Assembly (NCBI GenBank): GCA_037074705.1
Contig: CM073596.1
Coordinates: 16,133,501-16,197,500, forward strand
Length of the DNA: 64,000 nt
Source: Zhengitettix transpicula
Taxonomy: Eukaryota > Arthropoda > Insecta > Orthoptera > Tetrigidae
Direction: 5' to 3'
The notes under the pieces were generated by a model. That model saw nothing but the letters and a program-made list of their open reading frames with translations, was not told where the DNA came from and searched no databases. Shown piece by piece: positions 8,582 to 55,287 of the stretch. Every line of letters begins with the position of its first letter. Position 1 is the stretch's first letter. The position numbers and the translations under genes were made by a program.

Positions 8582-8767
8582 ATGCGGTCACTGCTGGTAT
8601 TGACGTCGGTCCTCTTCGTCCTGGGCGCCTTTCTTGTGGGCGTCGAGGCGTTGCCATTGAGCACGGCGCCCGGAAAGAATTTTTTCTACATGTGGCCCTT
8701 CCCGCCACAGGATTGTCCCGAAGGACAGCAGAAGGATGCGCTGGGAAACTGCAGGGACGTCTGGTGA
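8582..8767 (+). CDS. GBP/ENF-like cytokine precursor, shortest member
   Basis: A 61-residue prepropeptide. Residues 1-23 are a textbook signal peptide with a cleavage motif VEA. The 38-residue mature part is rich in Pro and aromatics (FFYMWPFPP) and ends in the module CPEGQQKDALGNCRDVW with the stop codon directly after Trp. C45 and C57 would form the single disulfide loop. The pattern C-x2-G-x6-G-x-C-R and the terminal aromatic match the generalised insect growth-blocking peptide motif. In that family, secreted precursors release a C-terminal peptide cytokine acting on haemocytes and on immune and stress signalling; in Drosophila the receptor is reported to be Mthl10. The ATG at 8582 is chosen because the in-frame extension upstream has no ATG. 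A poly(A) signal lies at 9080-9085. The family assignment is by motif only. Confidence 0.7.
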   Translation: MRSLLVLTSVLFVLGAFLVGVEALPLSTAPGKNFFYMWPFPPQDCPEGQQKDALGNCRDVW

Positions 8768-9520
8768 AACGTTTCAACAGGTAACACTTCCAACCAGTAC
8801 CGACAATTTTTCTAAGGCTTCCTGTAACTTTGACTTATCACCTTTAGTTGCCGTTTCTGGGAACGAATTTTTGAGTCTTGATACTATCTGTCCACCTATG
8901 GAAAACATCTCATCCACTCGACGTCTTTAGTCGAAACCCTTGTGTTTCTATTCCTTGTTGGAAAATCCAGTAAATTGATCCTTATTTTGTAGACTAAGAC
9001 TCGGAATTTACTCTTCAAGTCTTTATCCTACGTCAATGTATTTCTGTTTTTGTTTTCTGTTGCTAACATTCTTATAAAAAATAAAATGAATTTTACGATT
9101 CTATATTTAAAGAGAAGTAATGGCTTACATAATATAATTAAAGGGATTAATATCCGAATTCCTATGAGATCAAAGTTTTCAAAGGCATTCAGGTTTGAGG
9201 AAAATAGAAGTAAAAATAATAGTTAATCATATATTTAAGAATATATTACTGAGACTCAGACCAGTATGATGGAACATTGGGCTGATTTATTTACATACAG
9301 CTATTGTAGTCAGGAAATACATGCGATACAAATCTAGACTGGAAAACTTGACCCTCATTGAGCTGTTTCGATACAGTTCTGGCTTCCATTAAGTTAGAAA
9401 CACGCTTCTAGTATTTCTAGTATCTAGTATTATGAATTTTGTCTATTAGGACTGCGAAAATAATCCCTTAAGGAAAATAACTAGTCTGTACTAATTGTGT
9501 AGTTGTACGAGTCGAATCAC
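8768..9520. other. 3' flank of GBP-like gene
   Basis: Contains a donor-like CAG|GTAACA at about 8780 just after the stop and AATAAA at 9080-9085. The frame at 8736-8930 is a shadow of the gene. Nothing else is seen. Confidence 0.4.
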
Positions 9521-9522
9521 AG

Positions 9523-9664
9523 TATATATATATATATATATATTTATGTATATATATTTATGTATATATATACTTTTATATGTATATATATATTTATGTA
9601 TATATATATACTTTGATATATATGTATATTTATGTATATATATATATATATATATATATTTATG

Positions 9665-9696
<32 letters not shown>

Positions 9697-9862
9697 TATT
9701 TATGTATATATATACTTATATATATATTTATGTATATATATACTTATATATATATGTATATATATATAAAAATATATATTTATGTATATATATATATTTA
9801 TATATATATATATTTATGTTTATATATACTTTTATATATATACATATTTATGTATATATATA
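9523..9862. repeat. AT-rich microsatellite
   Basis: About 340 bases of (TA)n interrupted regularly by TTTATG, giving spurious Tyr/Ile open frames in two registers. It is not coding. Confidence 0.95.
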
Positions 9863-10378
9863 TGGCCGACCTTAATGCGAACTAAAAACTAAAAAATAAT
9901 TTTAACTATTTCAAATTTTTCCAGACTTAAATAAAGTTTTTTTAACGTTTTAGAAAATTTATTTTTTAATAATTTATTTTAATATTTCCAATTTAGTAAT
10001 TAGAAGAAATTTTTGTGAAGCAAACATTTTGCAGCATTATGACTTTTCTGGTGGTAAAAATCTTGTGTCAGGTTAATTGCCCAATATGTCACGCAACATG
10101 GCAACGCAACCTGAACTGACAAGACTCAACACAGAGTTTTGTGTGTTTACGTGTTTACTTCGCTGGATCTAAATATTGTAACTGTGCAAATATCATCACC
10201 GGATGTTAAGTTTACCAAAACAGGTAACCACATCCTTACAGCGAATGACTACACGCTTTGCGAAAATTATTTTTTTGGGGAAACTAAGACGACCACGAGG
10301 TAACTCGTACGTAGAATAGCTTCGAAGAAAGGAGGACGCCGAACATCTTCCAGCTACGACACTTACGAATTTAGATTA

Positions 10379-10427
<49 letters not shown>

Positions 10428-10500
10428 ACTTCTGATGTTAAGTTTGAAACCAAGTTGTGATAGCATTCGACCTGCCAAACGCTGGTTGAGTTGAGTACAA
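9863..10500. other. Intergenic, with a pure AT run
   Basis: Contains a (TA)n run at about 10384-10424. I see no gene. Confidence 0.5.
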
Positions 10501-10506
10501 ACTAGA

Positions 10507-16961: not shown

Positions 16962-17252
16962 TTCCTTTTAATTGACGTTTCTGAATACGCATCTCCGATG
17001 AAAGAAAGTTATTCTAAAAAATTCGATTACAATACTTTCCATAGATGACGTTAAATAGTAGAATCCCTCTGTCAACTTTTAGTTTACCAGCGTCATAACT
17101 GCGATTTAAGTACCTTACTGCGATATGTACCAGAGCAGTGGAACGTTGCTACATTAATTATGATTCATAAGCCTGGAAAACCTAAAGGAGAGTTGTCATC
17201 ATACCGACCAATCAGCCTATTACCATTCCTGTCCAAAGTATTTGAAAAATTA
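16962..17252 (+). pseudogene. Jockey-like LINE reverse-transcriptase fragment (left copy)
   Basis: Encodes the start of a Jockey-clade RT domain (WNVATLIMIHKPGKPKGEL, then SYRPISLLPFLSKVFEK) and is then cut off by the tail of an RTE-like element inserted in the opposite orientation. The whole segment recurs at 19046-19320 with only a handful of base differences by eye, so it is one arm of a duplication flanking the inserted element. Confidence 0.8.
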
Positions 17253-17488: not shown

Positions 17489-17503
17489 TGCCCTGCCCAT
17501 CTA
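17489..17503. repeat. Target-site duplication, left copy
   Basis: TGCCCTGCCCATCTA, identical to 18041-18055. It brackets the SINE-like element exactly. Confidence 0.9.
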
Positions 17504-18040
17504 TTTTTTTTTTAGGGTAACAGGCTACATGAGGGTAATCCACTTAGGGCAACTCCCCTTTAATAGCATAGGAAGGGATTTGAAAGGGGGGATGCGGAAG
17601 GGTAGAGGAAGGTAGCCAAGGGTTAACTAGGGCCCCCGGGCTGTATTTTAAGGATCCTACCCGGCATTCGCCTAAAGGAATGCAGGGAAAACCTTAGAAA
17701 AACCTGCATCGGGTAGGTCGGGCATTGGGTACTTGTCCCACGCCCTTCCGATAGCGGGAGAGGAGTTTGCTGTGGGGACGCAGCTTACCCCTCGCCATGC
17801 CTTGGCCTGTTTAGGAGGCAGCTGGCCGACTATTCCAATAGGAATAGCGGACAACTCTTGCCGTATGCCCAAGGTCTGCGACCCCGGAACATACACCTCT
17901 CAAAACAGACCGAGGTGCCTCGGCATGTGGGAACCTTAGTTCAAAAAAACCAGAGAGATGTGAGAGCATCCCCAAAGGTAGCCCCCGCCAGAGCTCTCTG
18001 GGAAGGTTCACCTGCGAGAAATCCTCTCGCAGGCTTCCTT
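17504..18040 (-). mobile_element. Complete SINE-like retroposon nested in RTE-like element
   Basis: This is the reference copy of the family: 537 bases, minus orientation, bounded by a perfect 15-bp target-site duplication. In element orientation it starts at the right with a small hairpin (GCCTGCGAGAGG / CTCGCAGG), runs through ACCTTTGGGGATGC, AACTAAGGTTCCCACATGCC, CGGCCAGCTGCCTCCTAAAC and GGGTAGGATCC, and ends GATTACCCTCATGTAGCCTG then TTACCCT and an A run. The A tail plus target duplication shows LINE-mediated retroposition. There is no protein-coding capacity, and I could not identify a tRNA, 7SL or 5S promoter head. Confidence 0.85.
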
Positions 18041-18055
18041 TGCCCTGCCCATCTA
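18041..18055. repeat. Target-site duplication, right copy
   Basis: TGCCCTGCCCATCTA, the partner of 17489-17503. Removing the SINE-like element and one copy of the duplication brings the RTE frame back into register across the junction. Confidence 0.9.
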
Positions 18056-19038
18056 AGTCTTGCACTCCTTATGAAGCTCACAATTTGGGGATCACCATAC
18101 AGTTCTTTGTTAGTTCTGATTCTCCATTCCTCATTTTCATACTTAGGCCCATAAATTCTTCGTAGGATTTTTCTTTCCAATGCTGCTATTCTGAATTCGT
18201 CGCACCTCAGCATACACCAGGTTTCTGCTGCATGGGTCACTACTGGTTTAATTACAGTTTTATAAATCTTTACCTTTCCCTTTTTTGAAAGGTATTGAGA
18301 TTTCAAAAGAGGAAGTAGGGCCCAGTAACATCTGTTCCCCATTTGTAGTCGTTCTCTAATTTCTTCTCCTATTGTACTATTTTCTGTTACTACTGAACCC
18401 AAGTATTTAAAACTCCGAACCCTATCAAAATTGAAGTCCTCTATGGAAATGTTATTAACATTTGCCCATCTTTCCTCCTTCCTAGATGCAATCATATACT
18501 TTGTTTTTCTCATATTCACCATCAGCCCTAATTTAGCTCCTTCCTGTTCTAATTGGGTGAACTTCAATTGTAATTCTTGGGCTGATCTGCTGATTAATAC
18601 AATGTCATCTGCATATGCCAATATTTGAGTCATTACGCTGTAAATTGACCCTCCGGGGTTTAATACCACTTTTCTAACTGCTCTTTCCAATACAATATTA
18701 AACAGTATAGCGGAAAGTGTGTCACCTTGTCTCAGTCCTTGTTTAATATCGAATTTGGTGGATACTTCTCCTTGAATTGATACTTTCCCTGTGTTGCCAT
18801 CAAGGGTCATCTGTATTAATCGAATCAATTTCCTGGGTACATAGAAATTAACCAATGTTTCAAAAAGCGCATTTCTATCAATTTTATCATAAGCTTGTTT
18901 GTAATCGATAAATAGCATATGCAGATCAATGTTAAACTCATAACATCTTTCCATAATGGTCCTTAGGATGAATATGTGAGAACTAGCAGACTTTCCTTTC
19001 CTGAATCCAGCTTGGTATTCCCCAACTGTGTTTTCCAT
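18041..19038 (-). pseudogene. RTE-like reverse transcriptase, RT core, 5'-truncated
   Basis: A long intact minus-strand frame carries the non-LTR reverse transcriptase core. Visible motifs are GEYQAGFRKGKSASSHIF, LFIDYKQAYDKI (palm motif A), GLRQGDTLSAILFN, the catalytic AYADDIVLIS (motif C, both Asp present) and the thumb/connection segment FKYLGSVV...KIYKTVIKPVVTHAAETW. The protein starts abruptly at the palm, with no endonuclease, so the element is 5'-truncated and dead. It is interrupted downstream by a SINE-like insertion; its C-terminus is at 17275-17488. It sits inside a Jockey-like remnant of opposite orientation. Its good frame preservation suggests recent activity. Confidence 0.85.
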
Positions 19039-20120
19039 GATTTTTCTTTTAATTGACGTTTCTGAATACGCATCTCCGATGAAAGAAAATTCTTCTAAAA
19101 AATTCGATTACAATACTTTCCATAGATGACGTTAAATAGTAGAATCCCTCTGACAACTTTTAGTTTACCAGCGTCATAACTGCGTTTTAAGTACCTTACT
19201 GCGATATGTACCAGAGCAGTGGAACGTTGCTACAATAATTATGATTCATAAGCCTGGAAAACCTAAAGGAGAGTTGTCATCATACAGACCAATCAGCCTA
19301 TTACAATTCCTATCCAATAAACTAACACCCATAATTAAGGAAAATAACAATACACCTAATCACCAGTTCGTATTTCGCCAAAACCATTCCACAATAGAGC
19401 AGGTCCATAGAATAGTAGACAGAATTATGAAGAGCTTCCAAGATAAAGAATAATGTTCAGGCGTTTTTCTCGATATTGTGCAGGCCTTTGGTAAGGTCTG
19501 GCACGGTGGCTTGTTATTTAAAATTAAAAAGGTATTACCCTCCTATTATTTCGAAATACTGAAGTCGGGCAGACACTTTGTTGTTAGGTATGGAGACTCC
19601 TATCAGAGCCGGCGTCCCCCAAGGAACTGTGCTGGGGCCGCTGTTGTGTCTCATATTTACTGCAGAACTTCCAGTCTCATCCAGGCCCACAGTTGCTACA
19701 TTCGCTGATATTACAGCGATACTATCATCACATTCAGACCCAAACATAGCATCTGAAAATCTAAATGTCCCAGTACTATGGTATAAAAAGTGGCGCATTC
19801 GTATAAATGAATCTAAATTAACCAATGTAACATTCACAACTACAAGAGGTACTTGCCCTTCTGTAGTCGTAAATGACAAACCAATACCTCAGGTAAAAAC
19901 ACCTAGATAGGCACCTTACAATGGGAAAGCACATATTTACAAAACGAAAACAACTGGGCCCAAAATTCCAGAAAAATGTATTGGCTAATGGGGCGGAAGT
20001 CACGCCTTCCACTGGAAAGTAAAAATACTACTTTATAAAACAACTATCCGGCCAATCTGGTCATACGGGATACAGCTTTGGGGCAGATTCAACGTCGATA
20101 TTCGGCCAGGAAAGGGGTAG
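19039..20120 (+). pseudogene. Jockey-like LINE reverse transcriptase, broken
   Basis: Continues the Jockey-like RT whose first part is duplicated at 16962-17252. Readable blocks in several frames are MIHKPGKPKGELSSYRPISL, IIKENNNTPNHQFVFRQNHS, FLDIVQAFGKVWHGGLLFKI, RAGVPQGTVLGPLL and, near the end, LLYKTTIRPIWSYGIQLWG. The catalytic box reads FADITAIL where FADDTAIL is expected, so the second catalytic Asp is lost. There is also a stop near 19453, at least one frameshift (about 19560-19600) and a small deletion after SLLQFLS compared with the left copy. It is non-functional. Confidence 0.85.
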
Positions 20121-20535
20121 ACGACCGGGAAGGTATGGCCCTAAAATAGATTGAAGTGGGTCACGTGTGGACAAGGACGGACAGAGAGAAGTCGGCGAAC
20201 ACGAGAAGAGATCGATCTGGACCGTCGGTGAGAGCAGTCTAGGAACACGTGGAGATCACTCTGGACCATCAGAGAGAGTTGATCCTGGACAATTTTGGTT
20301 TACACGTGGGTCCCCGGTCGTCTACTGCTGCTGCTGCAGAGAGAGAGTCGCCAACGGGAATCGACCCTGTCCGAGCTGCAGACCTGGTAAGTCACATTCC
20401 ATGCTTCCAGGTATCGCGTCGGTTTGCCACAAACATAACCACGGTTAATCCTGAGAAAGGGGAGGGGGGTACATGCATCCCTGGCAAGGCTGGAGAACTT
20501 TCGTGTTTAAGAATGTGTGGGCGAGTATATAAATT
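20121..20535. other. GC-rich unassigned stretch
   Basis: Two overlapping plus-strand frames (20167-20448 and 20249-20539) lack domains and signal peptides. A donor-like CTG|GTAAGT lies at about 20387-20392. This could be an unrecognised 5' exon or the leader of a retroelement, and I cannot decide between them. Confidence 0.3.
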
Positions 20536-20546
20536 CTGATAAAATA

Positions 20547-21082
20547 TTTTTTTATTTTTTAGGGCAACAGGCTACATGAGGGTAAACCCCTTTAATAGCA
20601 TAGGAAGGGATTAGAAAGGGGGGATGCGGAAGGGTAGAGGAAGGTAGCCAAGGGTTAACTAGGGCCCCCGGGCTATGGTTAAAGGATCCTACCCGGCATT
20701 CGCCTAAAGAAATGCAGGGAAAACCCCTGGAAAAACCTGCATCGGGTAGGTCGGGCATTGGGTACTTGTCCCACGCCCTTCCGATAGCGGGAGAGGAGTT
20801 TGCTGTGGGGACGCAGCATTCCCTTCTCCGTGCTCTACCAGTTTAGGAGGCAGCTGGCCGACTATTCCAATAGGAATAGCGAACAACTCTTGCCGTATGC
20901 CCAAGGTCTGCGACCCCGGAACATACACCTCTCAAAACAGACCGAGGTGCCTCGGCATGTGGGAACCTTAGTTCAAAAAAAACCCAGAGAGATGTGAGAG
21001 CATCCCCAAAGGTAGCCCCCGCCAGAGCTCTCTGGGAAGGTTCACCTGCGAGAAATCCTCTCGCAGGCTTCGCTTCTTTTCT
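20547..21082 (-). repeat. SINE-like retroposon, full length
   Basis: A full-length minus copy (T run at left, head hairpin CCTGCGAG/CTCGCAGG at right). It is flanked by CTGATAAAATA at 20536-20546 and 21083-21093, a likely target-site duplication. The right copy of the duplication is immediately followed by another SINE-like tail. Confidence 0.85.
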
Positions 21083-21093
21083 CTGATAAAATA

Positions 21094-21492
21094 TTTTTTT
21101 TTTTAGGGCAACAGGCTACATGAGGGTGATCCACATTGGGCAACTCCCCTTTAATAGCATAGGAAGGGATTGAAAGGGGGGATGCGGAAGGGTAGAGGAA
21201 GGTAGCCAAGGGTTAACTATGGCCCCCGGGCTATATTTTAAGGATCCTACCCGGCATTCGCCTAAAGAAATGCAGGGAAAACCTTAGAAAAACCTGCATC
21301 GGGTAGATTGGGCATTTGGTACTTGTCCCACGCCCTTCCGATGACGGGAGAGGGGTTTGCTGTGGGGACGCAGCTTACCCCTCGCCATGCCTTGGCCAGT
21401 TTAGGAGGCAGCTGGCCGACTATTCCAATAGGAATAGCGGACAACTCTTGCCGTATGCCCAAGGTCTGCGACCCCGGAACATACACCTTTTT
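21094..21492 (-). repeat. SINE-like retroposon, 5'-truncated
   Basis: Its T run starts directly at the target-site duplication of the previous copy. It breaks off at CCGGAACATACACC, so it lacks the head. The two copies form a tandem pair separated only by 11 bases. Confidence 0.8.
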
Positions 21493-22829
21493 GAAAATTT
21501 GTCAATAGAAAGTTTTTCACGGTGAATTTTAATCTGTATGTCAAAACAACAACTAAATGTCTCATTTTACGACAGATTGTTAGAAATAAATAATTTTTTA
21601 AATAAAGTACCTTAAAATCCCGATCTGTAGGGGATGCTCCAGGGCAAGGCACCTGGCATAGATATTATCCCTCTACGACCTTCCCCTTACGATATTCCAA
21701 TTCTGATATATCAATTGCTGCATTTTTCCTTCCTACTTTAAAACCTATATTTTTTATTTTATATTTCATAGTTTTTAAGTCTAAAAACGTAAGTTTATAC
21801 TCGATATTATTACCGTTTTATACATTAATGATTTTTTAAAGTTGATTGATGGAAGGTGAGTGCAAACACCAACACTCCATATAAGCATTTTCACCAAACA
21901 TATATTTCATATACCAGGATAAAAAATTAAATCATTGTTTACGGTATAAAATTCAAATCTATAGCATTCAAAATACTACTAAATTCAGTATTGACCTATT
22001 CATTATTATGCAATTCATTACAACTTTCTACTTTAAAGAACGTGTACTAATTGTATGGTATTAAATAGTTCTACACAAATCAGTGCAGTTTAAGAAATTA
22101 ATTATAAGGTGTGAATGACTTATTAACACAACTGCACTCGTCAGCTGACAAAACTCTTGTCTGAATTGGCTATTTTCTTATTAATTATTTTTAATTAGAC
22201 GTAAATTTTTCATTTTAAAAGATTATTTATTTGAATAATTTGATTTTCGTTAAATCACATTTTATATTTTAAGTAAATGCCTCAGTTTTTATGATAATCA
22301 AAATTTCAGGATCACTTATAGTGATTTGCAAATTTCACCCAGTTACAAAAGCAAAAAAAATGAATTTAAATTAACAATAACAATATTTTATACCAATAAC
22401 AAAAACTATAGAAATCTGATAAAGTTATAGAAATCTGGTGGTAAACGATATTTACGTAAAGGTTTACAGAAGAAAGTTTTTTGTTTTTACATACAATTTA
22501 TTTAGAGCAGCTCTGGTTTGTGCACACACGATTACTTAATTTTTATAGAACACTAATTTCATTGACAGGCCACGGCACTGATTTTATTATCGTCTCACTT
22601 TCCAAACCTTTGGACGCCTTTCTTCTTTGCTGTCATACGTATTGTCACGCCCAGTTTGCTGTGGTAAATCTTTAATAGAAAAAAATGATGATATTCAGCC
22701 CATTCTTTTATAAATTCGACCACCGCCGACTCTCGCCATGCTCCCAGAACACACGCGCTGTTCTCTGAATATGTGAGTTTTCTGACTACATACTGCTCTG
22801 CCTCCCAAATACACACTCACTGACTGTCC
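21493..22829. other. No gene seen
   Basis: Very AT-rich. The short frames at 22481-22675 (+) and 22595-22816 (-) have no recognisable features. Confidence 0.4.
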
Positions 22830-23312
22830 ATTTTTTTGGGTGTAGACAGGCTCCCCTCTTATATCATAGGAAAGGGATTTGAAAGGGGGGATGCGGAATG
22901 GTGGAGGAAGGTAGCCAAGGGTAACTAGGGCTATGGTTTAAGGATCCTACACAGCATTCGCCTAAAAGAAATGCATGACAAACCCTAGAAAAACCTGCAT
23001 CAGGTAGGTCGGGTATTGGGTACTTGTCCCAAGCCCTTCCGATGGCGGGAGAGGAGTTTGCTGTGGGGACGCAGCATTCCCTTCTCCGTGCCTCGACCAG
23101 TTTAGGAGGCAGCCGGCCGACTATTCCAATGGGAATAGCGGATAACTCTTACCGTATGCCCAAGGTCTGTGACCCCGGAACATACACCTCTCCAAACAGG
23201 CCGTGGTGCCTCGGCTTATGGGAACCTTAGTTCAAAAACGGAGAGGAAAAGGCATCACCGAAGGTAGCCCCTTCGTGTCTCTCCTACAAGGTTCTACCTG
23301 CGAGAGAATAGC
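22830..23312 (-). repeat. SINE-like retroposon, minus orientation
   Basis: Tail subfamily GGGTGTAGACAGGCT, with an internal gap just after it (the CTATGTATAGGGTAATCCAC block is missing). It extends to the start of the head hairpin (ACCTGCGAGAGAATAGCC). Confidence 0.8.
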
Positions 23313-23877
23313 CAGTTTTATTTGGGTGTAGACAGGCTATGTATAGGGTAATCCACATAGTCGCAACTCCCCTCTTATAGCATAGGAAGGGATTTGAAAG
23401 GGGGGATGCGGAAGGGTGGAGGAAGGTAGACAAGAGTAACTAGGGGCCCCGGGCTGTGGTTTAAGGATCCTACCCGGCATTCGCCTAAAAGAAATTCAGG
23501 ACAAACCCTAGAAAAACCTGCATCAGGTAGGTCGGGCATTGGGTACTTGTCCCATGCCCTTTCGATGACGGGAGAGGGGTTTGCTGTGGGGTCGCAGCTT
23601 TCCCCTCGCCATGCCTTGGCCAGTTTAGGAGGCAGCTGGCCGACTATTCCAAAAGAAATAGCGGACAACTCTTACCGTATGCCCAAGGTCTGTGACCCCG
23701 GAACATATACCTCTCAGAACATGCCGAGGTGCCTCGGCTTGTGGGAACCTTAGTTCAAAAACGGAGAGGAAAAGGCATCCCCAAAGGTAGCACCTTCGTA
23801 TCTCTCCTACAAGGTTCTGCCTGCGAGAGAACATCCCTCACAGGTTACCTTCGAGAGAAACCTCTCGCAGGCTTCTC
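23313..23877 (-). repeat. SINE-like retroposon, full length, doubled head
   Basis: Directly adjoins the preceding copy in the same orientation. It has a complete TTTGGGTGTAGACAGGCTAT tail and, at its 5' end on the right, two successive hairpin heads (CCTGCGAG...CACAGG and TTCGAGAG...CTCGCAGG), as in the copy at 7325-7737. Confidence 0.8.
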
Positions 23878-26578: not shown

Positions 26579-26579
26579 T

Positions 26580-28556: not shown

Positions 28557-28838
28557 ATGGCACGGGCATCGCAGCTGTTCCTGGCCGTCGTTCTCCTGGT
28601 CGCCTTCGTCGAGGCGGCCCCGGCGCAAAAGAATCGCCACCGACGTATGCTGCCTCCGCCGCCCCCGCCGCTGGTGCGTCCCCACAACCCCAAGGAGACG
28701 CAGGTTTCTACGACGGCCAGCACGACCACCGCCAGAACGATCCAAGGATTTAAACCCATCCACGTCATCATCGGGCCCAAATTGTGCGACGAAGGCGAGA
28801 AGCTGGATCCCTCGGGCAACTGCAGAGAGATCTGGTAG
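28557..28838 (+). CDS. GBP/ENF-like cytokine precursor 2, Pro/Thr-rich pro-region
   Basis: A 93-residue prepropeptide. Residues 1-20 are the signal peptide (cleavage motif VEA). Residues 24-31 are basic (KNRHRR), followed by a run of six prolines (about 33-38), a Ser/Thr-rich stretch (TQVSTTASTTTART) that could be O-glycosylated, then GFKPIHVIIGPKL and the C-terminal module CDEGEKLDPSGNCREIW. The stop follows directly on Trp. C77 and C89 give the 11-residue disulfide loop, and every position of the C-x2-G-x6-G-x-C-[KR] pattern is kept. The start context ATCATGG is good, and a poly(A) signal AATAAA lies at 29093-29098. The gene lies on the same strand as the other four GBP-like genes. Codons are GC-rich compared with the flanks, as expected of a real exon. 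Confidence 0.72.
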   Translation: MARASQLFLAVVLLVAFVEAAPAQKNRHRRMLPPPPPPLVRPHNPKETQVSTTASTTTARTIQGFKPIHVIIGPKLCDEGEKLDPSGNCREIW

Positions 28839-34531: not shown

Positions 34532-35293
34532 ATGGAAGTATTACGCCGGTTTGTCGTTAGTCTGGTCTTTCTGACAGCGACGATGGGTTTCGTTGTGTCA
34601 CCAGGTGTCACCGTAAAAACTAGTGAACATACGAGTAAGGTGCTACAGAGAAACTTCTCGAGGACCTCGATCAATCCTCGTGTCAGACTGTCCACGAAGA
34701 CCTCGTTCCGAACGCCCTTTAGGGATTCCACTCAGAGGACTAAAAACCTTGTACTTTCCAATAAGACCACGTTTCGCAGATCACTCAGCAGTACCGAGGG
34801 AACAATGCTCAATGGCCTCCTCAGCCAGAACCAGAGGACGAAGCTTATCAAGCAGTCCAAGAAGACATCATTTTCTCCGAGAACCTCATTCCAAACACCG
34901 TCCAAAAATCCCACTCACAGGACGACACAAAATGTGCCTTTCAATCGGACCACGTTTCGCAGATCTCTCAGCCAATCCCAGAGCACCACACTCAAAGGCA
35001 TCATCAGACAGACGCAAAGGTCCACGCTCAGTGGCCATATCAGAGAAACTCAGAAAACTCTTTTCCACAGGACCCTAAAATTGACTCAAGGGCCCATAGG
35101 ACACACCAAAGGCACTACACTTCGTGGAACCTTCAGACAAACCTCGAAGGCGTCTGCTCCGATGTCTTTCTTCACCGGTCACTTTCCAACCACGCAAGAC
35201 AAAAGAGGGGGTTTTCTCATCCAGGGTCCTCCTCTCTGTGAAGAAGACCAGCGTCGGGACGATAATGGTATCTGTAGAGACGTCTTTCGGTAG
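34532..35293 (+). CDS. GBP/ENF-like cytokine precursor 3 with long repetitive pro-region
   Basis: A 253-residue prepropeptide in one exon (Kozak-like GACCATGG). Residues 1-23 are the signal peptide. Residues of about 30-220 form a Ser/Thr/Arg-rich, Cys-free region of imperfect repeats: TTFRRSLS appears twice, each time followed by a T-x-L-x-G block (TMLNGLLSQNQRTKL, TTLKGIIRQTQRSTL), and FRTPF and FQTP recur. A dibasic site K224-R225 precedes the last 28 residues, which hold the module CEEDQRRDDNGICRDVF plus a final Arg. C236 and C248 would form the loop. The first conserved Gly of the GBP pattern is Asp here. Cleavage after KR would free a peptide of GBP-like size. A poly(A) signal lies at 35415-35420. 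It is by far the longest pro-region of the five. Confidence 0.7.
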   Translation: MEVLRRFVVSLVFLTATMGFVVSPGVTVKTSEHTSKVLQRNFSRTSINPRVRLSTKTSFRTPFRDSTQRTKNLVLSNKTTFRRSLSSTEGTMLNGLLSQNQRTKLIKQSKKTSFSPRTSFQTPSKNPTHRTTQNVPFNRTTFRRSLSQSQSTTLKGIIRQTQRSTLSGHIRETQKTLFHRTLKLTQGPIGHTKGTTLRGTFRQTSKASAPMSFFTGHFPTTQDKRGGFLIQGPPLCEEDQRRDDNGICRDVFR

Positions 35294-42070: not shown

Positions 42071-42317
42071 CCACCCAAAGCCTTTACACATATGTAGCAC
42101 TTTACGATACAGGAACTCATTACTTTTATCAACTACGGCTACAAACGTAAAATCAACAGAAATGACAACGACCAGATTTCAGGACGTGTTCATAGATTCA
42201 TAATTATATAAGCTAATCGAATAATCTGTCAGTGAATATCATTGGAGATTTTCCAGAAAGTATCAACATCCTGGATCACAATCACAGGCAAATAAATGGT
42301 TTATAATTATATAAACA

Positions 42318-42655
42318 TTTTTTTAGGGCAACAGGCTACATGAGGGTAATCCACTTTGCGCAACTCCCCTTTAATAGCATAGGAAGGGATTTGAAAGGGG
42401 GGAAGTGGAAGGGTAGAGGAAGGTAGCCAAGGGTTAACAAGGGCCCCCGGGCTATATTTTAAGGATCCTACCTGGCATTCGCCTAAAGAAATCCAGGGAA
42501 AACCCTAGAAAAACCTGCATCAGGTAGGTCGGGCATTGGGTACTTGTCCCACGCCCTTCCGATAGCGGGAGAGGAGTTTGGTGTGGGGACGCAGCATTCC
42601 TTTCTCCGTGCCTCGACCAGTTTAGGAGGCAGCTGGCCGACTATTCCAATAGGAA
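42318..42655 (-). repeat. SINE-like retroposon, 5'-truncated
   Basis: T run, then AGGGCAACAGGCTACATGAG through to CGACTATTCCAATAGGAAT, where it stops. The head half is missing. The frame at 42544-42816 is partly repeat. Confidence 0.8.
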
Positions 42656-44375
42656 TTATTGATTATATAAAAGGGGAAAATTTATTTTTCTTCGCAGTTA
42701 GACTTATTCTTGTATGTACCTCACATAAGATACATAATCAAGGTTTTGTTTTTTGTCTCACAGGAAGGACACAGTTATTTTATTTTTATGTTTACTTAAA
42801 ATGTGTAAGTATGTAATGACCATTATTGCTTCAAAATTTTAATTTTGAATCTGCTTGGGCTGTGCATTCTGTAGGATTACTCGATACTCCAGAAAGCATA
42901 GCGTTTCTGTCACTGATCCTAACCACAGAAATATGTATTACGGTTGCTTCCAAATTGCTGATTAAACATCAAGAACCAGAAAGTGAAGTCGTTTAAGTCA
43001 CGACAGAAATTTACCGCCCGTTCTGTCACTATGTCAAATGTACGGCCAGCTGATCACGTCAGCTTAAAGCACTCCAGAGGGAAGATGCTGGATCGATTGA
43101 CGCACGCGCAGATTCAGTGGTCCTTGGAGCTGTGGCCGAATTACAGGGAAACGACTTCTGCTCTCTCTCTCTCACTGGGGAAAACTGGTCAGTAAGTCTG
43201 GCAAAGTGTTTTTCACACCGCGAATGTCACGAACTATTTTTTTTTTCAAAAATCATACACATATATTTTTTATTGACACATGTTATAGCTATTTAACCGT
43301 GATAATTTCGAGATGAAAATTGTGACAACGTAGAATAGGACAGCTTTCCTTCGACTGGTGCATTGACTTCTGTATTCTTATTTTTATTCCGTTATATCTA
43401 AACTGGTAGTGAAACGAAAATGCATAGTGCGTGAAAATGAGCAGTGTACTTAATGTGATTATACTTTACATTTCCTCATACTTCAATAAATTAAAAACTA
43501 TTTTTATTTTCAACAACATGGACTTAGTCTCGAATATTTGTGATAATATTTCAATGAAATACTCAATATAATTTTTTTTCTTCATAATTTACAGCTAATT
43601 TTCAAGCCATTTATTATGAAGCGTACTCTTAGCACTTTATAACTCATTTTAACTTTATTAAGCAGTAGCAGCTTTCGTTACTTGGAACGATTGGTGTAAT
43701 GAAATAAACGTTAGCGTAATTACAAAAAATTCAGACCGCGACCAACATTTTATTCAAAGGACGAATTCTAGAAACTAGCAACACAGAAATAAATGAATTG
43801 TCAAATAAAGTGATTTAAAAGTCAGTCATATAAACGATTTATTTTTCGGGAGAATCTATTGAAAAGTATAGACGAAGCCTGTTTGCTAAAGAAATACTCT
43901 GTTTTACGACATTAAAGAAGCCGAATTTTAACTGACGTCTAAGAGTTTAAGTTTTGAAAAATATACAAAGATACATTGATAAAGGAAAGTTCAATAAGAC
44001 TTTAGAACAGTCAGGTCCAAACAACTTGTCCAATTCTTGGTGTAGGTTCCGGTGTCAGAGACTGGTTTTTCCCAATTATATCATCCGACCAGTCGGTCAA
44101 CAGATTCCAAGGTTGGTCTTTCATTGGATGTCGAGACCAAACTGTATTGCCATCTAGTTAGTAATATGTTAAACTGATTTGTGATGTAACTTAGTATCGA
44201 GGTTATGTCCAAAAATTGGTTTCCTCGAGGTCAATCCTGTAGAAAAAACAATGCTGAACGTTCAGCTGAGTTCGTAATTATGCGTCCAAACACGGCTTCA
44301 CGTCTCTAAAAAGTCGATAATAGCCAAATGTGATGACTTTTTGTTGAATTTGACACCGCATTCTAGCGGGGCTCG
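42656..44375. other. No gene supported; possible leader exon near 43000-43194
   Basis: A GC-rich stretch at 43010-43194 ends in a good donor (CTG|GTCAGTAAG) and could be a 5' UTR exon of the gene at 44376. The frames at 42983-43195 and 43954-44157 lack signal peptides and domains. Confidence 0.3.
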
Positions 44376-44636
44376 ATGCGGCTGTGGGGCGTGCTCCTGC
44401 TGCTTCTGGTCTTGCAACTTCTTCTATGGGGCGATAATCCCGTGGAAGCCTGGAGGAAGAACAAGAAGAAGAAGTTGCTGAAGAAGGGCCTCAAAGCTCT
44501 CCGCGGTGACAGCGATGAGGTTGAGTACGAAGACTACGGAGACGCCAACAACACGGCGGCGGCTCTTCATTACTCGTCGTTGTTTCCGGCGGCCACGGCT
44601 CTGATGCATCTTCAGAGACTGCGGAGACAGCGGTAG
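44376..44636 (+). CDS. Secreted precursor of a Lys-rich amphipathic peptide
   Basis: An 86-residue product. Residues 1-25 are a very hydrophobic signal peptide with cleavage motif VEA. Residues 26-44 are WRKNKKKKLLKKGLKALRG: ten positive charges, no acidic residue, Leu placed to make an amphipathic helix, and an N-terminal Trp as in several cecropin-type peptides. Residues 45-56 are acidic (DSDEVEYEDYGD) and could neutralise it in the precursor. The rest is Ala/Leu-rich with a basic end (LQRLRRQR). There are no cysteines. The exon is GC-rich compared with its flanks, and a poly(A) signal lies at 45095-45100. Gly44 after Arg43 could be an amidation donor if cleaved there. The antimicrobial role is inference, and no known family is matched. 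Confidence 0.6.
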   Translation: MRLWGVLLLLLVLQLLLWGDNPVEAWRKNKKKKLLKKGLKALRGDSDEVEYEDYGDANNTAAALHYSSLFPAATALMHLQRLRRQR

Positions 44637-46656: not shown

Positions 46657-47101
46657 ATGATCGCCGCGAAAGTTCTCCTGATGTTGGGTGCTGCGGTGCT
46701 GGTAGCTCAGGCCATCGAGGACTTCGCAGCCAGGTCTGGAAATTTGTGTTTAGACTGTTTCCTTCCACCTTCCTCTCCACGACTAGTTCTAGCATCCATG
46801 GAGCTGCTTCTCATGTTACGTACAATTGCATTCCGCTTTCTTCAAACGATTCCACAGGGCCGATGAACCGTATCTGTCTCCAGTGGGTCCCAAGGGATCA
46901 ACAAATCCTGTCAAAGTCAAGAGCAAGAGCAGTCCCACGGCAACTACCCCGAAGAGCTCCAGTCGTATGAGATCTTCACCCCCTAAAACTAGCAGAACCA
47001 CAACTACCCGAACCACTTCCACGACAATCAGCACGTCTCCGGCTCGAGAACCAACCACCAGCACATCCTTCAGAAATACCACGAGCTTCCCTCTAGTATA
47101 G
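46657..47101 (+). CDS. Secreted Thr/Ser-rich mucin-like peptide, two exons
   Basis: Exon 1 is 46657-46733 and exon 2 is 46858-47101, separated by a 124-base intron (CAG|GTCTGG ... TTCCACAG|GG). The splice is phase 2 and recreates an Arg codon. The 106-residue product has a signal peptide (MIAAKVLLMLGAAVLVAQA), a short acidic start (IEDFAARADEPYLSP), a Lys/Ser segment and a long Thr/Ser stretch (SRTTTTRTTSTTISTS, then PAREPTTSTS) likely to be O-glycosylated. There is no Cys. Unspliced reading of exon 1 would instead give a 69-residue hydrophobic protein. I prefer splicing because exon 2 is in frame, low in stops and compositionally like the Thr-rich pro-region of the GBP-like gene at 28557. 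A donor-like GTATAG overlaps the stop, so a further exon is possible. Confidence 0.5.
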
Positions 47102-48480: not shown

Positions 48481-50112
48481 GGGAATGGTGTTTTGGACAA
48501 GGGATCACATCAAGCCAAAATTTCTTTGAGACTTATTGGAGTGCGGAAAAAAGTTGTGACATTTGTTTCCACGAGTAGGAAATATATTAAGAAATTCCTG
48601 AGTGTTTTAATTGAAATTAACGAAGTTTCCTGTGTCTATTTCTAATTTATTTGAAAGCAAAATAACTTAAAACTACAAATATAGAATGAGACATTCTTTT
48701 ATCAACATTTTCTCTCTCGATCCCTGATTGTGTGTATTTCTCTGTGATTATGTGTGAATGTGAACTACTTAAACTTCCGTTGACCGTTAAAACGGAAATA
48801 CGATATGAAGAGCCCGTGGACTTTAATGGACATTTTCCTCCAAGGAAATTTATGTCGACTCTAGTTTAGGTGAGATTTGTATACTGTTATCTTTAAGTCA
48901 CAGATATATTATACGATTGTAGATACCAATAAAACCTCAGTATCGCAAATTTTAGTTTCCTAAGAACACATTTCCTGTTTCAGTTTGCTTTTGAGAACTG
49001 ACTGTTTAGCATGGTTCATATTCTTTTTCTTCAAAATATAGCGCGTTATTGGGGATAGGCGTCTTTTCATTGATTTATACTGATTTAGTCAGTTTGTTTA
49101 ATCGCGTGAGCAACCATGTTTTGCCGATTTTTCCAACACCAGCGGAAAATACCGTTTGATGCCAGTCCGGCTGGGGTTTATAACTGTACCTCCATCGGGG
49201 GGGGGGGGGTTTCCGGTCCGAAAACAGCAGGTGCAGAGGGTCTAGCTGTTGAAATTTTCTACGTCAGATTGTCTAGGACCTGTGATTGGTCCATAACAAA
49301 TTAAATGGACCAATAGAGAGACAGTTGGAGACACAGGTCGCGAGAAGTGAATGCCTGGAGAGCATTCTAACTGGCTGTGAGCAGTTGCTCTTGTCTCTGG
49401 AAGGATGAGATCAGCGAGACTCCACCAAAGGCATCAAGTCGATGACCAGCTGCGAGGGACGTCGCTGTGTTGCTGAGACCCCCCCAGTCGTGTAACCAAT
49501 ATAGCACATTTATCATGCTTGCGTAGTGCACTTTTTATATAAAATTCGTTTTCTCGGGCCTAGTTTGCCACAACAATCCTTGGGTTTCATAACTGGCTAG
49601 TCGGGGCAAAATTTTATAATTATATATGTTTATACTTTCAAAATAAATTAGTTATGTGTAGAATGGGTTGTTGTTTTCCCTAGAACTTCCGCCTACCGCA
49701 GGTAAGCCGTTCCAAGAATTGGACCGCTGGAGACGTGCTACGGTGCGGTAGCTAGGGGAGTACTACAAAAAAATATGCATTAAGTGATCAATTGCTGTAT
49801 ATTTACAGTGTCTCACGTTTCTCCAGTTAATGCATATAAATTTGATAATTACATAATTTTAATTCCCTACCTTCATAGTCAACCTACAGTTCAAATTTTG
49901 CAACAAGTCAGACCGAACGATTGGTTGCCTTGTTAAGAGTTTTTTGTTATTTTTTTAAAAACTTGAATTTATTTGATTGTGTTTTTATGAGTAGTTGCTG
50001 TTTATTTTTGTCTCATAGTTCCTTCATAACTTTGAGATCAGCTATTATTAAGAAGAAACACATTCAGACACTAGCATTTCCAATGTCGAGTTGTTGTACT
50101 ACTTGAGAAAGG
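48481..50112. other. No gene recognised; GC-rich island at 49100-49780
   Basis: The island at 49100-49780 includes a poly-G run (about 49198-49209), the open frame 49116-49304 with no signal or domain, and a donor-like CAG|GTAAGC at about 49701. It could be an exon cluster or a retroelement leader. The rest is AT-rich. Confidence 0.3.
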
Positions 50113-50235
50113 GTTTGGGGATAACCGGCTACATGACGGTAATCCACGTGGTGGCAACCCCTATTTAATAGTATAGGAAGGGATTTAAAAGGGAAGATGC
50201 GGAAGGGTACAGGAAGGTAGCCAACGGTTGACTAT
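50113..50235 (-). repeat. SINE-like 3' fragment
   Basis: GGGGATAACCGGCTACATGA to GGTAGCCAACGGTTGACTAT, a diverged minus-orientation 3' end. Confidence 0.75.
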
Positions 50236-50350
50236 GTTTTTTTTAGGGAAACAGGCTACATGAGGGTAATCCACGTTGGGCAACTCCCCTTTAATAGCAT
50301 AGGAAGGGATTTGAAAGGGGGTATGCGGAAGGGCAGAGGAAGGTAGCCAA
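50236..50350 (-). repeat. SINE-like 3' fragment inserted next to the previous one
   Basis: Starts with a T run and AGGGAAACAGGCTACATGAG directly at the end of the neighbouring fragment and stops at GGTAGCCAA. A second, less diverged 5'-truncated insertion. Confidence 0.75.
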
Positions 50351-50970
50351 CCTGATGTTCAAGTATACATACATATGTATGTAATTAGTATCACCATTTT
50401 TTCCATCTCAACAAATTTTCAAAACGTCTTTCAGTATTATAATTTTAGTTTTGCAATTTTACCGACAATAGGATCCAACGTTGTTGTTTCCCGTAGTCAA
50501 GAAATCTATTGTCCACCAAATATTATCATTATCAAAATGAAATCAGAAGAACCATTAGGTATATTAACTTTCAAAAGTACTATTAGTTTTTATATATCAG
50601 AATGCAACTGATTAGGTGATCATTTGAAACTGACCGAAAAAAATTGTAATAAGTTACGGAATTCATGGTTTTTAAATGAATAATTTCCTTCTAATTGTAA
50701 ATCCTTACTGTAGTAATTTCTACTTATGCCGAAAATATAATTTCTTAACTTCTAAATATATTGCGAAATTCAGATTCCTCTAACCGTATAAGTCAACCTG
50801 ATCCTATTATAACTTCACCTTTGTGGTTTTCCTTAACCCCGACAGTAGTATGAAATATATAATTTCTAATGTTCGGACAACCTATTGAAAAATGTACGGA
50901 AAACGAGGGGGGGGGATGATTCCGGAATTTCTTGTAGTTTATTATAAACCATACTACACCAATTTTTTTT
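50351..50970. other. No gene seen
   Basis: AT-rich. The plus frame at 50375-50611 has a hydrophobic start but a low-complexity, AT-driven composition. I do not support it as a gene. Confidence 0.35.
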
Positions 50971-51418
50971 CCCCTTTAATAGCATAGGAAGGGATTTAAT
51001 AGGGGGGGATGAGGAAGGGTAGAGGAAGATAGCCAAGGGTTAACTTGGGTCCCCGGGCTATGGTTTAAGGATCCTACCCGGCATTCGCCTAAAAGTGATG
51101 CAGGACAAACCCTAGAAAACCTGCCTCAGGCAGGTCGGGCATTTGGTTCTTGTCTCACGCCCTTCATTAGATTGGGGACGCAGCATTACCCTCTCCGTGC
51201 CTCGACCAGTTTAGGAGGCAGCTGGCCGACTATTCCATTAGGAATAGCGGACAATTCTTACCGCATGCCAAATTTATGAGACCCCGGAACATACGCCTCT
51301 CAAAACAGACCGAGGTGCCTTGGCATGTGGGAACCTTAGTTCAAAAAATCCAGAGAGAGGAGCCTCCTCCAGAGCTCTCTGGGAAGGTTCACCTGAGCGA
51401 GATTTCTCTCACAGGCTG
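50971..51418 (-). repeat. SINE-like retroposon, minus orientation
   Basis: From CCCCTTTAATAGCATAGGAA to the head hairpin (GAGCGAGATTTCTCTCACAG). The very tail is replaced by a T run, and there is a short deletion in the CACGCCCTTC...GGGGACGC region. Confidence 0.8.
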
Positions 51419-52256: not shown

Positions 52257-52439
52257 ATGAGGAGCTCGGATCTTCTGGTCGTGGTGCTCGTTGCGTTAAC
52301 ATGTTCCTCTGCAGCGGTTTTAAATGTCTTGGAGAGGAACGTTATACAGACGCCTAACCTGCCTACAAAGTGCGAAGACGGACACCTACCAGATCTTCTG
52401 AACGAATGTCGTGAGGTCTGGAAGAGACATGAAAGGTAG
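52257..52439 (+). CDS. GBP/ENF-like cytokine precursor 4, minimal pro-region
   Basis: A 60-residue product. Residues 1-20 are a signal peptide (MRSSDLLVVVLVALTCSSAA), followed by only 18 residues of pro-region (VLNVLERNVIQTPNLPTK) and then CEDGHLPDLLNECREVW with a basic extension KRHER to the stop. C39 and C51 keep the 11-residue spacing and the following Arg-Glu-x-Trp. The second conserved Gly of the GBP pattern is Asn here, so this is the more diverged version of the module. The KR after Trp could allow trimming of the tail to the aromatic end seen in two other members. Gene 5 follows 2.5 kb downstream on the same strand. Confidence 0.62.
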   Translation: MRSSDLLVVVLVALTCSSAAVLNVLERNVIQTPNLPTKCEDGHLPDLLNECREVWKRHER

Positions 52440-53522
52440 GCGCCGCGACGTTTCGTGACCAGCTCGGTTCCACTTGCTCACGAAGAACGCGGTTTACTCC
52501 GAAACTTCTGAGCTCGACATATAATTGATATCATTTCCCCTAGAAACTAAACGAGGTGTCTTTAACAGTAAATGTGTGGAATGAGTCGAATGATTCTGAT
52601 TAATTTCTATTTTCCATTGGATCTTTCAAATGATGCGCACAGTTGAACAGAAATCGTAACGTAGCGAGTATTAAGATTATAACATGTCATATACAGGAAT
52701 AACCGAAAGTAGATTGGAACGCCGCCACGTGTATTCAGTATAATTTAGTGTTCGTTTATTAGTAAAAAATTAATTCTGAAGGATACAATTTTTGGAGTGT
52801 AGATGTTTTACAAAAGGGGTTGTATAATTAATTTTAATTTTTAATTTATATTTATTACACATTAGTCCGTCTTACGATTTTTCATTCATTATAAATAATA
52901 TATATAATACTTTTTATTTAAATAAATACTAAAAGAAAAGAAACGTTTTCTATAAAATCAGTGACAAGTTATATAATAAAAATTTATATTATAATTGGTT
53001 GAAACTGGCCAAAAGTCATAAATTTTTGTATAAACAATAAAATTTACAAGTAACTAACATAAGTATATTATTAGACAAACCATTAAAATAAATTATAAAA
53101 AGTCACATTTTAAATATATTAATAACCCACTCTTTTAAGTCATAAAATCGAGTGTGTCAATTATTTTTTGAATTGGTTACTCTTACATTGAAAAAGTAAT
53201 GGTGATCAAGGGGCGCCATTGTCGTATTAAATTTTAAAAATATTTCCCTTTAGCTAGCCTGCAATTAAGTGTTTTTAAGTTTTACGTCTTACATAACCAC
53301 TTAGTCTCCTTAATAAGTTGCATTTCAGAATTTAGTTTCCATTTCAACAGAACTCTAATTAAAACTGTCGAAGGTTTTTGTGGCCGTTGTAATAAGAAAG
53401 TCATGCTTCAGTATTTGGCCACGTTTTATAACTGCGTGACCAAAACAAAAATCGATGCATACATTTGATAAAAACAATTATTGTTCTATTGCAACGGTTC
53501 TTTGACGAATCCAAGCTTCAGA

Positions 53523-53570
<48 letters not shown>

Positions 53571-54930
53571 AACTTCAATGTACGTGACTCCATTTTGTTG
53601 TACTCATATTTAATTCTGCTTGATGTCCACAATAACTAACCCGTCTACTCCTTTGTTCCAGATGATTGCTGCCTCAGTAAATATGTGTCGTCTCGTGCAG
53701 CGTGTTTGTCTCTCTTATTATTCCTACCGTAACATGTTTTGTTAAAATTAATAAATGTATTACAAAATATGACTCTGTGTTCAATTAAAACCTAATTTAT
53801 TACACACGTCTCTGTCTGTACTCGGCATTAACGTATTATTGTGTTGTTTCCTGTTGGACCGGAAAAATACTCTTCAGCCTCGGTCACGTAAATTATTAAT
53901 TTTAATTTAATTTAACATTGATAAAAGTAACTATGTTTACTTCTTAGATATAAATAAAACTGTTGAAATATTTTTAATGAAAAAAACTTACAAGAAATTA
54001 TATACGTGCTAGGATTATTTTTGAATGTGGACATAAGTATCTTAACAATGTTTTTTGTTTTCTGTAAAAGATCAGGAATAAATGTCAAAGCTATGCAGTT
54101 ATCAGTTGTTCTCAAAAGAAAACCTAGATCCTTCCTGTTCGACGTTTGATGAACAAATATCTGAAATATTATTTGTTTCCATTTGGATGATGTGAATGCG
54201 TTAGAATGCAATCTAACTGATGACGGTGAATGCGACATATAAATAACCAAGCACATGTTCTGACTCTAGAAATCGGAAGATATTGTCAAAAGAATGAAGT
54301 AAAACTCTATATCCCTAGGCCGGCGAGATATAAGAGTTTAAAAAACAGATAGAAATAAAATGCAACCAATATTAATGACAGATAATTAATTTGTTAATGA
54401 CGAAGGAATTAAACTATAATATATCTATAAGTGGTGATAAAAAAAATTCACTAGGTTACGAATATTGATAGCTTACGTAGTTCAATGTGACGAATCGAAG
54501 AAGTGACCGCAGAATGACTTAAATATCCAAAGAAACAATTGGTTTTGGAGCCTATACAGCGAATTGTTATGAATAAAAAATCATTTTTGCCTCGTATGAG
54601 CGTGAAAACTTATAGAAACTCGTATAAAATTAGAATAATCTGAACAATATTTAAAATAAGGCTTCGTTTTGTCTATTCATTCGAAGAATTTTCTTGAGGT
54701 TTCATTCCTGTTTGGCAGGTAACACTTGGTAAGTTATAAGAGAGCAATAGATTGTTCGTAAGAACAAAGCTCCAGGATCATGAGCCGTTTATTTCATAAC
54801 TAGCCTTGGCTGTGTAGATAACCCCTTTGAGCAGTGGTCAACGTATCGATGTCAGCAAACCACAGTCGCAGATAAGAGCAGGTAGTGATTGTGTCCAAAC
54901 CGCGGTCAAGATTTCATCCCAGACCTCGTC
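52440..54930. other. Intergenic between GBP-like genes 4 and 5
   Basis: AT-rich, including a (TA)n run at about 53528-53568. The minus frame at 53912-54256 has no recognisable domain. The last 100 bases before 54931 are GC-richer and may be leader. Confidence 0.4.
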
Positions 54931-55287
54931 ATGGACGCCAGGTGGTTGCAACTTCTGCTGTTAGCGACGGTCATCTTTCCGGAGGCGCACCACCAGCGTC
55001 TGATCTTCCGCGACAACGAGTACCAGCCGGAAAAGCCGCATCTCAACGCCTTCAATGACGCCACGATCTTCAAGAGGCAACGTCTACCACCCTCGTCAGT
55101 GGATCTCAGCAGCTGTGTCAAGATCCCGACACCAACTTGGTCCTCGGAGGCGTGTGTCGTATTCAAGAGCACCACCAGTTCTGACGGGATGTTTCGTAAC
55201 ATCATAAGCTCGCCGAGTTTGCCAGACTGTGACGAGGGTCAGAAGAGGGACCCCAACGGCATATGCCGAGACGAATGGAGGAAATGA
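54931..55287 (+). CDS. GBP/ENF-like cytokine precursor 5, with extra Cys pair
   Basis: A 118-residue product from the ATG at 54931 (the frame is open from 54889 without an ATG). Residues 1-19 are the signal peptide (MDARWLQLLLLATVIFPEA). The pro-region has a basic site FKRQR at 48-51, which could be a processing site, and two extra cysteines, C62 and C75 (SSCVKIPTPTWSSEACVVF), not seen in the other members. The C-terminal module is CDEGQKRDPNGICRDEW with Arg-Lys after it. C100 and C112 form the loop, and all motif positions are kept. It is the member closest in module sequence to gene 3 (NGICRD shared). A poly(A) signal lies at 55492-55497. The exon is GC-rich in AT-rich surroundings. Confidence 0.7.
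   Translation: MDARWLQLLLLATVIFPEAHHQRLIFRDNEYQPEKPHLNAFNDATIFKRQRLPPSSVDLSSCVKIPTPTWSSEACVVFKSTTSSDGMFRNIISSPSLPDCDEGQKRDPNGICRDEWRK

What the first reader, a model, noticed from the sequence alone, without database searches (positions are those of the whole stretch)
8582..55287. Cluster of five GBP/ENF-like cytokine genes sharing only a C-terminal Cys-hairpin module
Seen: five same-strand secreted precursors end in CPEGQQKDALGNCRDVW, CDEGEKLDPSGNCREIW, CEEDQRRDDNGICRDVF, CEDGHLPDLLNECREVW and CDEGQKRDPNGICRDEW, with identical 11-residue Cys spacing, a fixed Asp at module position 8, Arg after the second Cys and Trp/Phe at position 17. Known: the insect growth-blocking peptide (ENF) family is described by C-x2-G-x(4,6)-G-x(1,2)-C-[KR] at the C-terminus of secreted precursors. 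Inference: this is a tandemly expanded cytokine locus with one invariant signalling module and otherwise unrelated pro-regions, possibly a family not annotated before in this lineage because each ORF is short.
Basis: partly seen in the sequence, partly recalled or inferred. Interest (0 to 1): 0.88.

Follow-up and report, generated by a model that had tools for sequence, protein, structure and literature searches.

The report
Clustered GBP-like peptide hormone genes
Five neighbouring predicted genes, with three related copies clustered on another chromosome-sized contig, each encode a small precursor ending in one shared two-cysteine module, which is likely cut out and would act as a wound, stress or growth signal like the insect growth-blocking peptides.

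Summary
Five + strand ORFs (8582-8767, 28557-28838, 34532-35293, 52257-52439, 54931-55287) end in the quoted modules; 100 dinucleotide shuffles gave the core module three times in total, against five in the window. Thirty residues of gene 5 against the whole 994-Mb genome returned seven matches at E<=10, all family copies: these five and two on contig C2; a third, decayed C2 copy came with another query. A 60-aa relative of gene 4 (82% identical) exists in an unnamed assembly. The module is constrained as protein; the codons before it are saturated. The precursors also share a hydrophobic-Pro arm. GBP membership is only partly met: the published motif fits 3 of 5 and Pfam GBP_PSP 0 of 5, although it finds a moth paralytic peptide. 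Fold matches are not significant; three of 17 for gene 5 are GBP-family entries, none of five for gene 4. Secapin-like peptides are a real rival. A Methuselah-type receptor exon exists in the genome. Secretion, cleavage and signalling are inferred.

The parts
8582..8767 (+). gene 1: 61-aa precursor, hydrophobic leader, module CPEGQQKDALGNCRDVW at the very C-terminus
   Evidence: found again genome-wide with gene 2 and gene 5 queries
8714..8764 (+). gene 1 hairpin module
28557..28838 (+). gene 2: 93-aa precursor, hydrophobic leader, Pro- and Thr-rich pro-region, module CDEGEKLDPSGNCREIW at the very C-terminus
28785..28835 (+). gene 2 hairpin module
34532..35293 (+). gene 3: 253-aa precursor with Arg/Thr/Ser-rich, internally repeated pro-region, Lys-Arg site, module CEEDQRRDDNGICRDVF plus one Arg
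35237..35287 (+). gene 3 hairpin module (lacks the first motif Gly)
52257..52439 (+). gene 4: 60-aa precursor, module CEDGHLPDLLNECREVW plus KRHER; 82% identical full-length relative P0001 in another assembly
52371..52421 (+). gene 4 hairpin module (lacks the second motif Gly); AF2 hairpin
54931..55287 (+). gene 5: 118-aa precursor, module CDEGQKRDPNGICRDEW plus RK
55195..55284 (+). gene 5 C-terminal 30 residues: RNIISSPSLPD arm and hairpin module (55228-55278); AF2 beta-hairpin

Best explanation
Five same-strand open reading frames encode small precursors, predicted to be secreted, that are likely cut at a basic residue to release 27-29-residue single-disulfide hairpin peptides, which would act as extracellular signals of the growth-blocking-peptide kind. 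They probably arose by old tandem duplication; with two intact and one decayed copy on contig C2 they form a family of at least seven intact members in this genome. The steps shown by sequence are: shared module, clustering, constraint on the module, and conservation of one member elsewhere. The steps inferred are: signal-peptide cleavage, release at the basic residue (Lys or Arg, once Lys-Arg), one disulfide closing a beta-hairpin, release into haemolymph on wounding, infection or nutrient change, and action through a Methuselah-type GPCR with calcium signalling. The divergent pro-regions would set when and by which protease each peptide is released, while the hairpin carries the signal.
For: Module far above chance (5 against 3 in 100 shuffles). 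Genome-wide query with gene 5's last 30 residues: 7 of 7 matches at E<=10 are family members, within 47 kb on C7 and 16 kb on C2 of a 994-Mb genome (best non-self E 5.2e-5, the other five 0.06 to 7); gene 2's last 28 residues gave 5 of 5 such matches, c2b 5 of 5, c2c 4 of 4. Gene 4 is conserved full length as P0001, E 9.4e-9, with 7 of the 11 differences in the 18-residue linker. Mean codon-position differences are 5.2/5.7/10.3 of 17 in the module against 12.5/11.8/11.9 in the 17 codons before it. A basic residue lies so that the peptide up to position 17 has 27-29 residues in 7 of 7 intact copies, under a rule I chose. AF2 gives a two-strand hairpin in the same register for genes 5 and 4 (pLDDT 74.8 and 69.2). 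Foldseek on the gene 5 model: 3 of 17 PDB matches are GBP or paralytic-peptide NMR structures. A published moth paralytic peptide, aligned without gaps, has the same Cys spacing, Gly4, Gly11, a basic residue at 14 and an aromatic at 17 (hhalign P 1.7e-4). A Methuselah_N exon is present in the genome (E 2.3e-8, 34.7 bits over a cut-off of 21.5).
Confidence: 0.6

Rival explanations
1. They are secapin-like peptides: a single-disulfide hairpin with a hydrophobic-Pro arm, acting in host physiology, as an antimicrobial or protease inhibitor, or in some insects as a venom component, rather than as a GBP-type cytokine.
For: The description of secapin-like peptides (single disulfide, beta-hairpin, hydrophobic pair near the N-terminus, Pro, conserved Gly) in PMC11335235 (passages read) fits the arm and module here. 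That paper reports such genes in several insect orders, citing Walker et al. 2023, of which I saw only the reference. An ant genome paper titled for tandem venom-peptide genes counts a secapin-like class among them (PMC10800049, passages read).
Against: No secapin sequence was compared in any call. The invariant Asp8 and the aromatic at position 17 are not mentioned in the passages read; the aromatic matches the moth paralytic peptide.
Confidence: 0.27
2. The module is a fragment of a larger Cys-rich inhibitor or EGF-like domain (TIL/IMPI type) that was recruited as a small protease inhibitor.
For: IMPI chains are the top Foldseek matches of both models (E 3.1 and 4.3); an EGF domain (9yio) and granulin also appear.
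Against: Only two conserved Cys; none of the five predicted released peptides has another Cys; no Pfam TIL or EGF match listed; all fold matches non-significant.
Confidence: 0.09
3. The five ORFs are chance ORFs or dead copies without function.
For: Repeat-rich surroundings; one C2 copy (c2a) is visibly decayed; two leaders are not outstanding in hydropathy; no expression data.
Against:: above chance, third-position bias in the module, conserved full-length relative, genome-wide matches confined to the two clusters.
Confidence: 0.03

Closest known systems
Growth-blocking peptide / ENF cytokine family (GBP, paralytic peptide, plasmatocyte-spreading peptide; Pfam PF02425)
   Same: C-terminal two-Cys module of a small precursor; same 11-residue Cys spacing as Spodoptera exigua paralytic peptide 2 (sequence from PMC9315633), Gly4, Gly11, basic 14, aromatic 17; predicted hairpin; several genes per genome, as in Drosophila with five GBP-like genes (PMC6439351).
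   Different: No ENF start, Asp8 invariant, hydrophobic-Pro arm, longer predicted peptide, motif met by 3 of 5, Pfam model not met.
Secapin-like peptides (bee, ant and processionary-moth peptides; non-venom relatives reported in several insect orders)
   Same: Single-disulfide beta-hairpin, hydrophobic pair, Pro and Gly (PMC11335235, passages read).
   Different: No sequence comparison made; Asp8 and the aromatic at position 17 are not mentioned in the passages read.
Insect metalloproteinase inhibitor (IMPI) and EGF-like hairpins
   Same: Top structural neighbours of the predicted hairpins, non-significant.
   Different: Larger Cys-rich domains (recalled); here only one disulfide and no Pfam match.

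Membership tests
GBP/ENF cytokine | Consensus C-x(2)-G-x(4,6)-G-x(1,2)-C-[KR] (PMC6439351) | tested here: inconclusive
   Met by genes 1, 2 and 5, not by genes 3 and 4 (3 of 5); P0001 also fails, the moth control passes.
GBP/ENF cytokine | Pfam PF02425 GBP_PSP | tested here: not met
   0 of 5 window proteins and 0 of 4 relatives; positive control paralytic peptide 2 scores 56.6 bits. The 23-position model was matched from its first position by the ENF start, so it may be narrow.
GBP/ENF cytokine | ENF N-terminus (lepidopteran members) | tested here: not met
   Absent in 5 of 5 sequences.
GBP/ENF cytokine | Active peptide of 19-25 residues, from a precursor | tested here: inconclusive
   Module at the C-terminus of a small precursor in 5 of 5; predicted length 27-29 counted to position 17; secretion predicted from leaders only.
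GBP/ENF cytokine | EGF-like hairpin fold | tested here: inconclusive
GBP/ENF cytokine | Signals through Mthl10-type GPCR and calcium | not testable with these tools
   A Methuselah_N exon exists in the genome, not typed to Mthl10; binding untested.
Secapin-like peptides | Single-disulfide beta-hairpin with hydrophobic pair, Pro and Gly | tested here: inconclusive
   Arm and predicted hairpin present; compared only with a published description, not with sequences.
Secapin-like peptides | Sequence homology to a secapin | not tested
   No secapin sequence was used in any call.
TIL/IMPI or EGF domain | Multi-disulfide domain recognised by Pfam | tested here: not met
   No such family listed at E<=10 for 5 of 5 (HMMER's filters drop most matches above about 0.1).

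The most novel reading that the evidence does not exclude
These genes are the link between two peptide groups so far treated apart: they carry a GBP-type hairpin and a secapin-type hydrophobic-Pro arm on one peptide. GBP cytokines and secapin-like (including venom) peptides would then be one insect superfamily, kept here in its ancestral, clustered, endogenous-hormone state on two chromosomes, each copy wired to its own protease by a free-running pro-region.
Probability: 0.33. Interest if true: 0.72.

Novelty: new variant of a known kind. Interest (0 to 1): 0.55.

Why it matters
GBP-type cytokines couple wounding, infection, nutrition and growth in insects, but outside moths and flies the genes are hard to find because so few residues are conserved. 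A genome with at least seven intact copies in two tandem clusters gives a testable set of ligands. It makes direct questions possible: do several hairpins share one Mthl receptor, do the divergent pro-regions encode different release triggers, and are GBPs and secapin-like venom peptides one family? In the full-text library searched, no paper holds both 'secapin' and 'growth-blocking peptide'; that library lacks most subscription journals.

Tried and rejected
Chance ORFs: rejected. More copies near the clusters: a profile scan of 174 kb (window plus 110 kb fetched) found the eight copies and one further match at window 33342 (17.9 bits), which has a stop 28 codons upstream and no leader; none lay in the 20 kb on either side of the window. 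Pfam, NCBIfam and PDB sequence searches gave no family. Protein database: gene 5 gave 3 candidates and no match, gene 3 gave 384 candidates and no match, and an alignment of four of the five proteins (gene 3 left out for length) gave one match, P0001, among 953 candidates. Viral contigs: a DNA pattern gave 0 matches, and 13 stretches matched a peptide pattern but none was confirmed; prokaryote contigs: 4 such stretches, none confirmed. Reverse transcriptase against phage records, to place the sample: no match. Shared upstream elements among the five window genes: none convincing (TTACGTCA-type site in genes 2 and 3 only; no upstream similarity). Fold search of two models and one VIA-align second look: nothing significant. 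Papers on a GBP gene cluster: the 12 papers listed (of 2,164 holding four of six terms) do not hold the name growth-blocking peptide. A whole-genome search with PF02425 and one with gene 1 did not complete; gene 3 was not sent. The species was not identified by any search.
Full report
WHAT IS THERE. The window is C7:16133501-16197500 of an unnamed 993.6-Mb genome in 337 contigs. Each is open from ATG to stop and starts with a hydrophobic leader. By hydropathy alone the leaders rank 1, 6, 6, 13 and 14 of 76 ATG ORFs in the window, so secretion is predicted, not shown.

CHANCE. A loose scan (C-x8-14-C-[KR] near a stop, with an upstream ATG) found six ORFs in six frames, these five and one other. 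In 100 dinucleotide shuffles the core module occurred 3 times in total and the ORF-terminal form once in total, against 5 and 5. ORF GC is 0.49-0.63 against 0.29-0.36 in flanks. Over the ten gene pairs the module differs on average at 5.2, 5.7 and 10.3 of 17 first, second and third codon positions, while the 17 codons before it differ at 12.5, 11.8 and 11.9. The module thus looks constrained as protein and the duplications old.

THE WHOLE GENOME. Gene 5's last 30 residues gave seven matches at E<=10 in the whole genome, 7 of 7 being family members: the five window genes and C2:31862498 and C2:31878301; best non-self E 5.2e-5, the other five 0.06 to 7. The E-values of those five are weak alone; that they fall in two small loci and nowhere else is the evidence. 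Gene 2's last 28 residues gave five matches, all of them family members. The C2 gene c2b (77 aa) gave five, all family, including a further copy c2a at C2:31852469; c2c (80 aa) gave four, all family. Gene 4 at the stricter E<=0.001 gave only itself. The tool scores only its best candidates, so more distant copies may exist. The three C2 copies lie within 26 kb, all on the + strand; c2b and c2c carry tails of 16 and 17 residues after the module. c2a is decayed: it keeps Cys1, Gly4, Asp8, Gly11 and Cys13 but has lost Arg14, the aromatic and the arm. c2b and c2c share 79% over 128 bp upstream of their ATGs, and c2a and c2b share 70-75% in pieces, so this cluster grew by tandem duplication; no such similarity is left among the five window genes. 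A profile scan of the window plus 110 kb fetched around both clusters found no further copy.

RELATIVES ELSEWHERE. In 5.8 billion proteins a profile of genes 2, 5, 1 and 4 (gene 3 left out for length) found one relative at E<=10, P0001 (60 aa, E 9.4e-9), from a 986-base contig of an unnamed assembly. It is 82% identical to gene 4 over the full length; of 11 differences, 2 of 20 leader, 7 of 18 linker, 2 of 17 module and 0 of 5 tail positions differ. The linker excess has P 0.012; the shortage in module plus tail is not significant (P 0.14). Single searches with genes 5 and 3 found nothing, nor did viral or prokaryote contigs.

ANATOMY OF THE PEPTIDE. Before the first Cys lies an arm of the form hydrophobic-hydrophobic-x-x-Pro (VIQTP in gene 4 and c2b, IISSP in gene 5, LIQGP in gene 3, VIIGP in gene 2, FYMWP in gene 1); the Pro column is invariant in the alignment of the five, c2b and P0001, while c2c, not in that alignment, has Gln there. 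Counting from the last basic residue at least eight positions before the Cys, the peptide up to position 17 is 27-29 residues in 7 of 7 intact copies; the residue is Arg in four and Lys in three, and gene 3 has Lys-Arg. That rule was mine and made after seeing the sequences: it skips Lys residues nearer the Cys in gene 2, gene 4 and c2c, and in gene 2 and c2c the chosen Lys stands before a Pro, so the cleavage site is a guess there. AF2 models of the gene 5 and gene 4 C-termini give the same two-strand hairpin (pLDDT 74.8 and 69.2).

THE RIVAL. [quoted passage not shown] That describes the arm and module here well. I compared no secapin sequence. No paper in the library holds both names.

HOW IT LIKELY WORKS. 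Inferred: the precursor is secreted, a protease cuts at the basic residue, the hairpin closes by one disulfide, and the peptide acts on a GPCR. Drosophila GBP acts through Mthl10 and calcium (PMC6439351), and a paper title seen in a reference list speaks of proteolytic activation of GBPs in wound detection. This genome has three matches flagged over the cut-off for the Methuselah N-terminal domain (26.8, 21.6 and 21.2 bits, the last 23.9 with its neighbours; one of 14 control genomes matched below the cut-off). The best lies in a 472-aa open frame that scores 34.7 bits, E 2.3e-8, and continues into hydrophobic segments as expected of a receptor. It was not typed to Mthl10, and whether it binds these peptides is untested.

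NOVELTY. Five GBP-like genes are already known in Drosophila (PMC6439351), so a multi-gene family is not new in itself; whether those are clustered I did not check. What I did not meet in the papers searched (an open library without most subscription journals) are two tandem clusters, the arm-plus-hairpin combination with Asp8 in all eight copies, and window genes whose pro-regions keep no detectable DNA similarity.

Noticed in passing
C2:31852469-31878435 (L008, L007/L004, L010; also L014-L016): Second + strand cluster of three related precursors on another contig, one decayed, with shared upstream DNA between neighbours.
   Followed up: yes
window 904-1167 (+): GC-rich ORF with hydrophobic leader and a good splice donor (GTGAGT) inside; possibly the first exon of another secreted protein.
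   Followed up: partly
window 44376-44636 (+): 86-aa ORF: hydrophobic leader, then a Lys-rich stretch (WRKNKKKKLLKKGLKALR) and an acidic tail; Pfam's best match is 19.6 bits, under its cut-off of 24, and not convincing.
   Followed up: partly
window 46657-47100 (+): Leader-like ORF start followed, after a good acceptor site read by eye, by a Thr/Ser-rich frame ending RNTTSFPLV; resembles the pro-regions of genes 3 and 5 but has no Cys module; possibly a decayed sixth copy.
   Followed up: partly
window 60181-60429 (+): 82-aa ORF with hydrophobic leader and a Gly/Arg-rich stretch (GGGGRGGRGGGR); no Pfam family.
   Followed up: partly
window 34700-34845 and 34883-35028 (+): Internal repeat (70.5% over 146 nt) in the pro-region of gene 3.
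   Followed up: no
window 17941-19107 (-) and 31455-31865 (-): Reverse transcriptase (RVT_1, E 3.6e-28) and a transposase fragment (Transposase_1, E 2.6e-10) between the genes.
   Followed up: no
window 1491-1894, 4100-7203, 17501-23772, 42312-42747, 50106-51358: Family of dispersed GC-rich repeats of a few hundred bases in both orientations.
   Followed up: no
window 63416-63488 (+): tRNA-Ser-like gene, Rfam tRNA 50.9 bits.
   Followed up: no
L027:814-2232 (-): 472-aa open frame with Methuselah_N domain (34.7 bits): candidate Mthl receptor exon in the same genome.
   Followed up: partly
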